From Hyphomonas sp. (GTDB lineage Bacteria > Pseudomonadota > Alphaproteobacteria > Caulobacterales > Hyphomonadaceae): DNA of 64,000 bases. The translations under genes and the position numbers were made by a program. The DNA lies in the NCBI RefSeq assembly GCF_016125515.1, contig NZ_WGLO01000010.1:124001-188000 (forward strand). Direction: 5' to 3'. The notes beneath the pieces are model-generated. The model was not told the DNA's origin. It saw only the letters and a program-made list of their open reading frames with translations, and ran no database searches. How positions within the stretch are numbered: the first letter of the stretch is position 1; the number at the start of each line of letters is the position of its first letter. Of this stretch, positions 18,816-24,545 are shown in pieces.

Positions 18816-20102
18816 CTATTCCGCCGCCCGCGCTGCGTCCCGGCGGTAATTCTTCGTCGCCATCAGGAGGCAGACGATGCTGGCCAGGTTGAACAGCAGG
18901 ATCAGTTCCAGCGACCGGGCTAGTGGGTGTGCCGCGCCGGTGGACGCAAAATGATCCGACAGCAGGCCCGCGATCCAAGGACCGCAGCCGATGCCGATCA
19001 GCGTCAGGCAGAACAGCATGAACGCCGACGCGAACGACCGCATACGGAGCTTCACCAGTTCCTGCGAGGCGGTATAGGCCACGCTCGCATAGATCAGGCC
19101 GATGAAGCTTGGCACCACGTTCCACGCATAGGCCATCTCCACGTTCGGCGCGCGCAGGAACATCCAGGCAAAGGGCAGGGCGATCGCCGCGCAGATCGCA
19201 ATGATCAGCGGCCGCCAACGCAGGTCTTTCTTCGACAGCGTGTCACACACTCGGCCCAGAACAACCGCGCCGATACTGCCGACACCGCCAATCAGCACGC
19301 CCAGCGGCAGCGACACCTGGCCCGGCGAAAGTCCATAGGTGCGCTGCAGGTGGCTGGAGGTGAACACGAGGAAGGCGTTCGCCGAGATGCAGATCAAGAG
19401 GCAGCCCGCCAGCAGCCAGAGGTAAGACGACTGGCCGAATACGAACTTCACGGTCTCCGCCAACGTTGGCGCCGGTCCGTCATCCTTGCGCTGGTCCGCC
19501 AGTCCGCGCACCGGCTCAGGAATGGCAAAGCGGACCGTCAGGGCAAGGAGCAATCCCGGAATACCCGCCACGAAGAAAGCCGCCCGCCAGCCCCAGAGTT
19601 CGTACACATAGCCGCCCAGTGCAAAGCCGGCCATGATGCCGAGGCCTATACCGCTGGTATAGACGCCGAGCGCTGTGGCGCGTTCCTGCGGCGGATAGAG
19701 ATCGGCAATCATCGAGGTCGCCGGCGGCGTGCCGCCCGCTTCCCCCACGCCGACGCCCATCCGCGCCAGCAGGAGGTGCCAGAACGTCTGCGCCAGGCCG
19801 CACAGCGCCGTCATCGCAGACCAGATCGTCAGCGCCAGAGCGATGATGTTGCGCCGGTTGCCACGGTCCGCCCACATCGCGACTGGAATGCCGAGCGTTG
19901 CATAGAAGGCCGCGAAGGCGAGCCCGGTCAGCATGCCCAGCTGGCTGTCCTGCAATCCGAGTTCGTTCTTGATCGGCTCCAGCAGGATCACCAGAATCTG
20001 CCGGTCCACATGGTTGAACGTATAGGTCAGCGTCAGCACCGCCAGCACCCAGGCCCGGCCGGAAATCTTCGGCGCCGCAGTCGGAATCGTTGTTGAGATC
20101 AT
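18816..20102 (-). CDS. MFS transporter (spinster-like / sugar-phosphate or aromatic-acid type)
   Basis: A 428-residue, 12-helix major facilitator. It begins MISTTIPTAAPKISGRAWVLA and shows the Caulobacterales and sphingomonad spinster-type signature YTFNHVDRQILVILLEPIKNELGL, plus the DRGNRRN loop. The start ATG at 20100-20102 overlaps the stop of the upstream alpha/beta hydrolase gene by 4 bases, so the two are translationally coupled. Such transporters are often encoded beside TonB-dependent receptors and hydrolases. The substrate is unknown; context suggests an ester or amide product released by the hydrolase. See the operator motifs upstream. Confidence 0.87.
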   Translation of the reverse strand: MISTTIPTAAPKISGRAWVLAVLTLTYTFNHVDRQILVILLEPIKNELGLQDSQLGMLTGLAFAAFYATLGIPVAMWADRGNRRNIIALALTIWSAMTALCGLAQTFWHLLLARMGVGVGEAGGTPPATSMIADLYPPQERATALGVYTSGIGLGIMAGFALGGYVYELWGWRAAFFVAGIPGLLLALTVRFAIPEPVRGLADQRKDDGPAPTLAETVKFVFGQSSYLWLLAGCLLICISANAFLVFTSSHLQRTYGLSPGQVSLPLGVLIGGVGSIGAVVLGRVCDTLSKKDLRWRPLIIAICAAIALPFAWMFLRAPNVEMAYAWNVVPSFIGLIYASVAYTASQELVKLRMRSFASAFMLFCLTLIGIGCGPWIAGLLSDHFASTGAAHPLARSLELILLFNLASIVCLLMATKNYRRDAARAAE

Positions 20103-20974
20103 GCCTTGGTCTCCAGGCGTGTGAGGAATTCGGGGAGGGCGGCAACCGCCTCCGGCTCGTCGAGGATCGGCGCATGGCCGACGCGCGGCACGGTCACGAG
20201 CTTCGCGTCCGGATGCCGGCGCACCATCTCGCGTGCCGTCTTGTCGGATAGCAGATCGGAAATCCCGCCGCGCACCACCAGCAGCGGCGCCTTCTTCAGG
20301 CTTGCGAACAGGCGCCACAGCGCAAAGTGCGCCAGGACGCCCGGCTTCACCTTGCCCAGTCCACGCGCAATGTTCGGGTCATAGTCCAGCACTACCTGAC
20401 CATCGGGCAGTTCGCGATAGGTGCGCCGCGCGAAGTCCATCCAGCGCGCCTCCGGCATGTCGGGGAAGGCCGCGCCCTGGATGGTTTTCACGGCCTCGGC
20501 GGCGCTCTCCCATCCGGTCACCGGGCGAACCTTGCCAGCATAGCCGGCGATGCGCGTGATCCCGGTTTTCTCGACGACCGGGCCGACATCATTCAGCACC
20601 ACGCCGGCGATCCTCTCAGGCATCTGTCGCATCATCAGCAGCGAGATCAGGCCACCCATGGATGTGCCGACCAGCGCCACGCGGGTCAGGCCCAGCTGGT
20701 CAAGCAGGCGGCGCATGTCCTTGGCATAAACGCGCGGATCGTAATTGTCGGGGTTCGGGTCATGCGCCGAGCGTCCACGCCCGCGCACGTCCACCGCTAT
20801 GAAGCGGAACGACCGGGGCAAGGCGGCGATCATCGGTTCGAAATCCTGATGGTTACGCGTCAGGCCATGCAGGCACAGCACGGTCAGTTTCGCGGTCCCG
20901 GGACCATAGGCTCGCGCGTAGAGAGAAAGGCCGTCCTCAGACGTCCAGTGTATGTCCTCTGCCTCAAGGTTCAT
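20099..20974 (-). CDS. Alpha/beta hydrolase
   Basis: A 291-residue alpha/beta-fold hydrolase. The oxyanion HGLTRNHQDFEP and DVRGRGRS precede the nucleophile elbow GTSMGG (Ser), and the catalytic His is in VGHAPILDEPE near the C-terminus. The start is the ATG at 20972-20974, with a strong GGGAGAGAG ribosome site. It is the first gene of a two-gene operon with the MFS transporter and faces the tetR gene. A TCAAC-N4-GTTGA palindrome lies 40 bases upstream. Specificity unknown; esterase, lactonase or carbon-carbon hydrolase are all possible. Confidence 0.88.
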   Translation of the reverse strand: MNLEAEDIHWTSEDGLSLYARAYGPGTAKLTVLCLHGLTRNHQDFEPMIAALPRSFRFIAVDVRGRGRSAHDPNPDNYDPRVYAKDMRRLLDQLGLTRVALVGTSMGGLISLLMMRQMPERIAGVVLNDVGPVVEKTGITRIAGYAGKVRPVTGWESAAEAVKTIQGAAFPDMPEARWMDFARRTYRELPDGQVVLDYDPNIARGLGKVKPGVLAHFALWRLFASLKKAPLLVVRGGISDLLSDKTAREMVRRHPDAKLVTVPRVGHAPILDEPEAVAALPEFLTRLETKA

Positions 20975-21013
20975 CGCATCTCTCTCCCTGGCTCCGGACA
21001 CTTCCGGTCCGTT

Positions 21014-21027
21014 TCAACGCCTGTTGA
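21014..21027. promoter_or_regulatory. Putative TetR operator 1 (TCAAC-N4-GTTGA)
   Basis: Inverted repeat TCAAC-GCCT-GTTGA between the divergent hydrolase and tetR genes. The same half-sites and spacer recur twice in the TonB-dependent receptor promoter at 24344-24357 and 24364-24377. The position, 40 bases upstream of the hydrolase start, suits a repressor site. Assignment to the adjacent TetR protein is inference from proximity and symmetry. Confidence 0.6.
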
Positions 21028-21138
21028 GGACTTTGCAGGAAACGAACAATCGTGCAAGCTTCTGAAGCCCAGCCTACTTTGACTCTCCGGCCTGCAAGGG
21101 TCCATAACACCCACAAGAACAATTATGAGGATACGCCT

Positions 21139-21846
21139 CTGAGCGCTCGCAAGCCCCCCACGCCGCCCAAGACAGATCGGGCTGCCGCGATCCTCGATGC
21201 TGCCGAAGCCGAATTCAGCGCTCATGGTTTCGACGGCGTCACGCTGCGCACCATCGCCAAGCGAGCGGGCGTCGATGTCGCGCTGCCGCACTATTACTTC
21301 GACTCGAAGGACAATCTCTTCGTCGCGGTCTTCGACCGGCGTGCGAAGATGCTGAACGACTGGCGCGAAGAGGCGCTGATTGCGGCCATCGATGCCGCCC
21401 GGCCAAAGGCGCCCACCGTAGAAGCCATCGTGCGGGCCTATCTGGAGCCGCTGCTGAAAGGCCCGCACCTCGCCGAGCCGGGCTGGAAATACTATTACGC
21501 CCTCGTCGCCTACGTGAACAACGCGCCGGGCTGGGGCGGCCGGCTGATGGGTGAGCATTTCGATCCGCTCATCCGCAAGTTCCTGGATGCCTTGCGCCTC
21601 GCGATTCCCGGCATCGATCCGAAGGATCTCTACTGGGGCTATCATTGCTTCTCCGGCGCGCTCACGCTGGCCCTCGCCCAGACGGGCCGTATCGACAAGC
21701 TTTCGGGCGGCTTCGTGCGGTCTGAAGATCTCGCAGACGCCTGTGAGCATATGGTGCCCTTCATCACCGCCGGTTTCGAGGCGGCTAAGAAAGCCGTTCC
21801 GCCGGCCCGTGCCAAGGCCGCGCGCGTCAAAAGCTCAGCCCACTGA
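21139..21846 (+). CDS. TetR/AcrR family transcriptional regulator
   Basis: A regulator of about 235 residues with an N-terminal HTH (AAAILDAAEAEFSAHGFDGVTLRTIAKRAGVDVALPHYYF) and a C-terminal ligand-binding domain resembling the CecR/YbiH group. The family-like N-terminus SARKPPTPPKTDR follows a CTG at 21139 that has a GAGGA ribosome site 8 bases upstream, so I place the start there. A GTG at 21052 would add 29 residues that do not look like a TetR N-terminus. A 5-codon minigene (ATG at 21125, stop at 21140) ends over the CTG and could be coupled to it. It is divergent from the hydrolase-MFS operon and probably controls it. Confidence 0.85.
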   Translation: MSARKPPTPPKTDRAAAILDAAEAEFSAHGFDGVTLRTIAKRAGVDVALPHYYFDSKDNLFVAVFDRRAKMLNDWREEALIAAIDAARPKAPTVEAIVRAYLEPLLKGPHLAEPGWKYYYALVAYVNNAPGWGGRLMGEHFDPLIRKFLDALRLAIPGIDPKDLYWGYHCFSGALTLALAQTGRIDKLSGGFVRSEDLADACEHMVPFITAGFEAAKKAVPPARAKAARVKSSAH

Positions 21847-21865
21847 TCGCACCTTCCACGCCAAG

Positions 21866-21885
21866 AAAAAGGGGCGACGCCCCTT
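21866..21885 (-). terminator. Intrinsic terminator downstream of the TonB-dependent receptor gene
   Basis: On the minus strand, AAGGGGC-GTC-GCCCCTT is followed by a T run (the A run 21866-21870 on plus). It lies between convergent tetR and receptor genes. A second hairpin, GGTCCTGCC (21916-21924) paired with GGCAGGACC (21933-21941), is nearby without a clear T run. Confidence 0.65.
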
Positions 21886-21965
21886 GGACACCGCCCCAGT
21901 CTTGAGGCTCCCGGCGGTCCTGCCACTGTTGCGGCAGGACCTGGGAGGAAACGCGCCAGGCGCCC

Positions 21966-24302
<2,337 letters not shown>

Positions 24303-24341
24303 TGATTGTCCTCCCGGGACTCGTGTGTGAGCTTTTATGTG

Positions 24342-24359
24342 CCTCAACATATGTTGAGG
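24342..24359. promoter_or_regulatory. Putative TetR operator 2, perfect 18-base palindrome
   Basis: CCTCAACATATGTTGAGG is an exact 18-base palindrome lying 40 bases upstream of the receptor start. Its core TCAAC-ATAT-GTTGA matches the site at 21014-21027. Its centre is 20 bases, about two helical turns, from that of operator 3, which would allow two dimers to bind the same face. Confidence 0.65.
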
Positions 24360-24381
24360 ATTTTCAACAGTCGTTGAAAAT
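24360..24381. promoter_or_regulatory. Putative TetR operator 3
   Basis: A perfect inverted repeat, ATTTTCAAC (24360-24368) and GTTGAAAAT (24373-24381) around a 4-base spacer AGTC. The core TCAAC-AGTC-GTTGA matches operators 1 and 2. Confidence 0.65.
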
Positions 24382-24545
24382 GCACAGGTCTTCTGTGCTG
24401 TCAATTGTTCCCGCCTCAGGGACGAAATCCTTCCGGCGGGCGTTGCATTCGGGAGACAGGTCACCGCCTCTGCCCTGTTGCAGGGAGGGGGGCAGACCGC
24501 TATAGGCCCCCCAAATCCCACAACCCAATCAGTCAGGAAGCCCCC

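What the first reader, a model, noticed from the sequence alone, without database searches (positions are those of the whole stretch)
20099..24381. Three copies of TCAAC-N4-GTTGA define a local TetR regulon around a receptor, hydrolase and transporter
The same 14-base dyad, with a fixed 4-base spacer, occurs between the divergent hydrolase and tetR genes (21014-21027) and twice in the TonB-dependent receptor promoter (24344-24357 and 24364-24377). The middle copy extends to a perfect 18-base palindrome, and the last to 9-base arms. The two receptor copies are centred 20 bases apart, about two helical turns. This links an outer-membrane receptor, an MFS transporter and an alpha/beta hydrolase under one regulator, and looks like an uptake-and-cleavage system for an unknown compound. 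I saw the dyads directly; the regulator assignment is inference.
Basis: partly seen in the sequence, partly recalled or inferred. Interest (0 to 1): 0.75.

Follow-up and report, generated by a model that had tools for sequence, protein, structure and literature searches.

The report
TetR regulon feeding acetoacetate metabolism
A short DNA switch in a marine bacterium appears to control, together, an outer-membrane importer, an inner-membrane transporter, an ester-cutting enzyme and a distant enzyme that activates ketone acids, so it probably helps the cell use a compound that breaks down to 3-hydroxybutyrate or acetoacetate.

Summary
The three TCAAC-N4-GTTGA dyads are real and not chance. Relatives sharpen the motif to TCAACRNNYGTTGA. 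The genome (Hyphomonas, judging by relatives) has five copies: three here, one upstream of scoAB (3-oxoacid CoA-transferase), one upstream of a solitary traG/virD4-like gene. In 12 close genomes 54 strict copies occur against 0 for the reversed control; 51 fall at these targets. The scoA promoter carries the dyad in 43 of 48 examined genomes with the TetR ortholog and in 0 of 28 examined without it, which ties this TetR to the dyad in trans. In Hirschia, scoA plus 3-hydroxybutyrate dehydrogenase (bdhA), or bdhA alone, start at the dyads beside tetR; in Asticcacaulis bdhA adjoins the cluster. I infer a repressor of uptake and hydrolysis of an ester yielding 3-hydroxybutyrate/acetoacetate, perhaps PHB oligomers. 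Binding, inducer and substrate are unproven. My searches of open-licence papers listed no description of it.

The parts
21014..21027 (.). dyad (operator) of the hydrolase-MFS operon
   Evidence: exact match; same place in 34 of 48 ortholog loci
24344..24357 (.). dyad 1 of the receptor promoter (18-bp palindrome 24342-24359)
24364..24377 (.). dyad 2 of the receptor promoter
   Evidence: a dyad at the receptor promoter in 33 of 33 receptor-bearing ortholog loci
24399..24404 (-). putative -35 box TTGACA of the receptor promoter, starting 27 bases before the dyad
   Evidence: TTGAC lies 27-33 bases before the dyad in 32 of 32 loci with sequence there; not experimentally mapped
21052..21057 (-). 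putative -35-like box TTGCAC of the hydrolase promoter
   Evidence: TTGC at a similar place in 30 of 34 loci; inference
21139..21846 (+). TetR regulator (TetR_C_30), probably starting at CTG 21139
   Evidence: start from conservation in 16 loci
20099..20974 (-). alpha/beta hydrolase
   Evidence: closest solved structure 3bwx, 233 bits
18816..20102 (-). MFS transporter, overlapping the hydrolase stop
   Evidence: nearest solved structure 6e8j, 216 bits, then SPNS2
21966..24302 (-). TonB-dependent receptor

Best explanation
The TetR protein is a repressor that binds TCAACRNNYGTTGA. It controls (a) the hydrolase-MFS operon, (b) the TonB-dependent receptor, (c) in trans scoAB (3-oxoacid CoA-transferase) and, in a few Hyphomonas, (d) a solitary traG/virD4-like gene. 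At the receptor the dyads lie about 27 bases after the start of a -35-like box, over the expected -10/start region, so bound TetR should block RNA polymerase. With inducer present (I guess 3-hydroxybutyrate, acetoacetate or the imported ester), receptor and MFS import a compound, the hydrolase cleaves it in the cytoplasm, 3-hydroxybutyrate dehydrogenase oxidises released 3-hydroxybutyrate, and ScoAB makes acetoacetyl-CoA. Shown by computation: motif, targets, co-inheritance with this TetR. Inferred: binding, repression, inducer, direction of transport, substrate. My estimates: TetR-dyad regulon 0.93; feeding acetoacetate metabolism 0.8; substrate 3-hydroxybutyrate oligomers or similar esters 0.4.
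For: Exact dyad at the receptor promoter in 33 of 33 receptor-bearing ortholog loci and on the hydrolase side of tetR in 34 of 48. In 12 close genomes 54 strict copies against 0 control matches; 36 in the cluster, 12 upstream of scoA, 3 upstream of the traG-like gene, 3 elsewhere. scoA promoter: dyad in 43 of 48 examined carriers of the TetR ortholog, 0 of 28 examined non-carriers. Nine of 12 orphan-tetR genomes keep the exact scoA site. Hirschia G033 and G034: scoA then bdhA run from two dyads; G035: bdhA alone; these three bdhA proteins pass the TIGR01963 cut-off. Asticcacaulis L271: bdhA beside the MFS gene with a one-mismatch dyad upstream. Near-constant -35-to-dyad geometry. Paralog TetRs with other recognition-helix residues have other palindromes upstream in part of the loci.
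Against: No binding, expression or enzyme data. G035 lacks the dyad at scoA; orphans G069 and G071 have one mismatch there and G073 none; G042's lies about 630 bp upstream; non-carrier G021 has a one-mismatch site. The own genome's bdhA has no dyad within one mismatch near it. PF10503 (PHB depolymerase esterase) is over its cut-off in 8 of 37 genomes that keep the cluster or part of it and in 19 of the other 68, so not enriched. The hydrolase scores 64.7 bits against a cut-off of 300 for intracellular PHA depolymerase. scoAB lies next to tyrosine-degradation-like genes and may serve that pathway. In L269, L271, L272 and L275 genomes the strict motif occurs once each (control 0, 0, 1, 0), so scoAB is not an exact-site target there. 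Genome counts are not independent events.
Confidence: 0.7

Rival explanations
1. Same regulon, other substrate: TetR senses a 3-oxoacid or acyl compound, and the imported molecule is another ester or lipid-like compound whose acid product is activated by CoA transferase or, elsewhere, by a CoA ligase.
For: An acyl-CoA-ligase-like gene lies between dyad and hydrolase in L060 and L063, between hydrolase and tetR in L272 and L275, and between hydrolase and receptor in L276 (only the L272 protein was tested with profiles). TetR resembles PsrA, a fatty-acid regulator by its family name. No PHB-depolymerase link.
Against: bdhA and scoA linkage in Hirschia, bdhA in Asticcacaulis.
Confidence: 0.4
2. 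The dyad is read by another regulator; the neighbouring TetR only travels with it.
For: No binding data. Many genomes have further TetR proteins; paralogs at 39-47% identity occur in the family.
Against: 0 of 28 non-carriers have the scoA dyad, although 9 of them hold such a paralog at 40% identity or more (G007, G030, G053, G070, G077, G090, G091, G092, G098). Orphan tetR genes keep company with the scoA site in 9 of 12 genomes. Paralogs have other palindromes.
Confidence: 0.05
3. Efflux or detoxification: TetR derepresses an exporter and a detoxifying hydrolase.
For: TetR-MFS pairs often serve efflux (general knowledge); the MFS has weak, below-cut-off matches to efflux families, and also to uptake families.
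Against: Co-regulated TonB-dependent receptor in 33 of 33 loci and scoAB/bdhA targets point to uptake and catabolism.
Confidence: 0.08
4. Chance repeats.
For: A 10-base-specified motif is expected roughly once per genome; many cluster-less genomes show 0-3 copies.
Against: Fixed promoter positions in 33 of 33 receptor loci and 51 of 54 copies at the same targets with 0 control matches.
Confidence: 0.005

Closest known systems
PsrA-type TetR regulators (fatty acid degradation)
   Same: TetR with TetR_C_30 domain; NCBIfam PsrA profile is the best match, 79.2 bits; PDB 2fbq, which I recall to be PsrA, is third by sequence. By recall, PsrA also binds a 5-N4-5 type dyad.
   Different: Far below the PsrA cut-off of 300 bits. 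The dyad differs from the PsrA sequence I recall (GAAAC-type arms). Targets are scoAB, receptor, hydrolase and MFS rather than beta-oxidation genes.
NicR (nicotinate degradation repressor)
   Same: Best solved structure by sequence, 5fgl, E 3e-18; a local catabolic repressor (recalled).
   Different: Other pathway; no nicotinate genes seen here.
TonB-dependent receptor catabolic systems, e.g. for a lignin-derived aromatic (PMC6874591, listing and start of abstract seen)
   Same: Non-iron nutrient import by a TonB-dependent receptor linked to catabolic genes.
   Different: Substrate class; here inferred 3-hydroxybutyrate/acetoacetate esters.
Spinster-type MFS of solved structure 6e8j (recalled to be from Hyphomonas neptunium)
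   Same: Best PDB match of the MFS, 216 bits.
   Different: A moderate score, not an ortholog-level match; its substrate cannot be carried over.

Membership tests
TetR family of repressors | TetR_N helix-turn-helix domain over the Pfam cut-off | tested here: met
   56 bits against 24
TetR family of repressors | binds a palindromic operator at its target promoters | tested here: inconclusive
   dyad co-inherited with the TetR in cis and trans; no binding assay
PsrA | NCBIfam PsrA model NF053516 over cut-off | tested here: not met
   79.2 bits against 300
PsrA | controls fatty-acid degradation genes | not tested
   none of the dyad targets identified is a beta-oxidation gene, but such genes were not surveyed
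Intracellular short-chain PHA depolymerase (NF050089) | hydrolase over the equivalog cut-off | tested here: not met
   64.7 bits against 300
3-oxoacid CoA-transferase (scoAB) | TIGR02429 over cut-off for subunit A | tested here: met
   260.9 bits against 128.5 for the own-genome scoA
3-hydroxybutyrate dehydrogenase (linked bdhA in Hirschia) | TIGR01963 over cut-off | tested here: met
   342.3, 351.9 and 358.5 bits against 307.05; the Asticcacaulis L269 protein misses it (267.4) but passes NF009093 (265.9 against 258)
TonB-dependent receptor | Plug and beta-barrel domains | tested here: met
   both over cut-off

The most novel reading that the evidence does not exclude
A dedicated TonB-dependent uptake system for 3-hydroxybutyrate oligomers (or acetoacetyl/3-hydroxybutyryl esters), repressed by a ketone-acid-sensing TetR that couples outer-membrane import, inner-membrane import, cytoplasmic hydrolysis and CoA activation, and that in some Hyphomonas also switches a solitary type IV coupling-protein gene.
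Probability: 0.35. Interest if true: 0.7.

Novelty: new member of a known kind. Interest (0 to 1): 0.5.

Why it matters
Many TonB-dependent receptors of aquatic alphaproteobacteria have no known substrate (general knowledge). Here the regulator's distal and linked targets (scoAB, bdhA) point to a metabolite class and give concrete compounds to test. If right, it names a nutrient route for fragments of a common storage polyester and a ligand class for a TetR branch. The repeated loss of the transport genes with retention of tetR and its scoA site is also a clean case of regulon shrinkage.

Tried and rejected
Helical phasing of the receptor pair as a constraint: rejected, the offset varies.

The own genome's bdhA as a direct target: no site within one mismatch near it.

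Weaker sites genome-wide: 8 one-mismatch sites in the own genome against 7 control matches, treated as chance. Three of 54 strict sites in close genomes (G052 C52; G057 C14 and C46) share no target.

PHB depolymerase as partner: PF10503 not enriched.

Flanking epoxide hydrolase and thioesterase genes: no dyad there in the window.

Plasmid relatives of the TetR: all 114 records below 60% identity. One neighbourhood had no annotation; the other has a receptor and oxidoreductases but no annotated matching set.

Papers: PMC13273656 read as passages, an IclR regulator with another motif. PMC5343134 read as passages, PsrA given for fatty acid degradation; its main text has 0 occurrences of Hyphomonas, 'acetoacet' and 'CoA transferase'. 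The rest were seen only as listings with starts of abstracts. Structure prediction was not used.

Full report
OBSERVATION. The three dyads are exact at the stated places and the middle one is an 18-bp palindrome. The genes are an MFS transporter overlapping an alpha/beta hydrolase, a TetR protein with a TetR_C_30 domain and a TonB-dependent receptor. The genome has 5 exact dyads and 0 control matches. The two outside the window lie 118 bp upstream of scoA and 48 bp upstream of a traG/virD4-like gene.

RELATIVES. The TetR search matched 60 of 105 family genomes. 49 of these hold a match of 54% identity or more, which I call the ortholog. I fetched 47 of the 48 non-window ortholog loci (all but G055, of which only a short locus was held) and 13 paralog loci. 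With the window this makes 48 ortholog loci. 28 have receptor, hydrolase and MFS; 7 have one or two of them; 13 have none. 34 of 48 have an exact dyad on the hydrolase side of tetR. The 14 without are 12 of the 13 empty loci ('orphans') and G041 and G034, which have one-mismatch sites. The thirteenth empty locus, G087, keeps an exact dyad by tetR. 33 loci have a receptor, and 33 of 33 have an exact dyad at its promoter. Comparing copies gives TCAACRNNYGTTGA. I analysed 10 of the 50, from outside these genera (Asticcacaulis, Litorimonas, Robiginitomaculum and three MAGs labelled Gammaproteobacteria). The dyad is near tetR or the receptor, exact in 8 of 10 and within one mismatch in 10 of 10.

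DISTAL TARGETS. In 12 close genomes the strict motif occurs 54 times and the control 0 times: 36 copies in the cluster, 12 upstream of scoA (in G042 about 630 bp upstream), 3 upstream of the traG-like gene, 3 elsewhere. I read 400 bp upstream of scoA in 76 of the 98 genomes with scoA. Exact dyad in 31 of 33 receptor-bearing genomes (G055 counted here on its likeness to G056), 3 of 3 partial ones (G034, G087, G089), 9 of 12 orphans, and 0 of 28 without the ortholog. The five misses are G042 (site further upstream), G035, G069 and G071 (one mismatch each) and G073. G066 was dropped (partial scoA). Among the 21 non-carriers not read, comparing coordinates by eye shows no exact dyad at scoA in 17; 4 were not checked. 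Non-carrier G021 has a one-mismatch site. These are counts of genomes, not events, but carriers and non-carriers occur within one genus: 28 of 32 against 0 of 8 in the window's genus, and 4 of 4 against 0 of 9 read in g3.

ORPHANS. The TetR tree puts the 12 orphans in four groups, each among cluster-bearing genomes (read). Their flanking genes are shared with cluster-bearing relatives in each of the four groups (read). So the transport genes were probably lost about four times while tetR stayed, mostly with its scoA site. I infer that scoAB control is the more durable job of this TetR.

LINK TO 3-HYDROXYBUTYRATE. In Hirschia G033 and G034 scoA, followed by bdhA, runs from two dyads. In G033 the receptor starts on the other side of these dyads; in G034 no receptor was found at the locus and tetR is next. 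In G035, whose scoA lacks the dyad, bdhA lies opposite the receptor. The three bdhA proteins pass the TIGR01963 cut-off. In Asticcacaulis bdhA adjoins the MFS gene; in L271 a one-mismatch dyad precedes it, and in L269 the locus is cut there. Five loci have an acyl-CoA-ligase-like gene in the set: L060, L063, L272, L275 and L276 (profile test only for L272). I infer that the imported compound is hydrolysed to an acid that is then activated with CoA, in Hyphomonadaceae probably via acetoacetate.

MECHANISM. At receptor promoters TTGAC lies 27-33 bases before the first dyad in 32 of 32 loci with sequence there; at hydrolase promoters TTGC stands at a similar place in 30 of 34. The traG-like promoter has TTGAC directly before the dyad, exact in G000, G051, G072 and G061, with one mismatch in G067, and degraded in G068, G069 and G073. 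G068 lacks the TetR ortholog; G069 and G073 are orphans without an exact scoA site. This geometry suits a repressor. Paralog TetRs have other palindromes upstream: TTCACTC-N6-GAGTGAA in L088, L093 and L094 (not as such in the similar L090 and L092), and TTTATTCAT-N2-ATGAATAAA in L089 and L091.

NOT SHOWN. Binding, repression, inducer and substrate. The hydrolase is not recognised as a PHA depolymerase, PF10503 enzymes do not travel with the cluster, the own genome's bdhA is not a dyad target, and four more distant genomes show only one strict site each. I hold the specific substrate at 0.4.

NOVELTY. Eight searches of open-licence papers listed nothing that describes this regulon; papers of subscription journals are mostly not held. 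TetR-controlled catabolic regulons are a known kind; this is a new member with an unusual target set.

Noticed in passing
21127-21141 and the tetR starts of L038-L052: tetR of this clade seems to start at CTG: 16 of 16 loci have CTG there, mostly after a GAGG-type ribosome site; 6 of 16 have no ATG/GTG/TTG between the upstream stop and it, and 3 of these (L044, L049, L050) have none in the next 20 codons either.
   Followed up: partly
L006:4737-6311 (own genome C1): A solitary traG/virD4-like gene (T4SS-DNA_transf over cut-off) has the dyad just after a TTGACA box; the site is kept or decayed in step with the TetR system in 8 close relatives looked at. Why such a gene should be co-regulated is unexplained.
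   Followed up: partly
L045, between the dyad and tetR: The interval between dyad and tetR is about 560 bp longer than in sister genomes; the extra stretch was not identified.
   Followed up: no
L074 (G087), upstream of tetR: tetR keeps an exact dyad although receptor, hydrolase and MFS are all missing at the locus; what the dyad controls there is not known.
   Followed up: no
L060, L063, L272, L275, L276: An acyl-CoA-ligase-like gene sits in the cluster, perhaps doing the CoA activation that ScoAB does elsewhere.
   Followed up: partly
L088, L093, L094; L089, L091: Paralogous TetR clusters with receptor and/or MFS genes have other palindromes upstream (TTCACTC-N6-GAGTGAA; TTTATTCAT-N2-ATGAATAAA), possibly sister regulons.
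   Followed up: no
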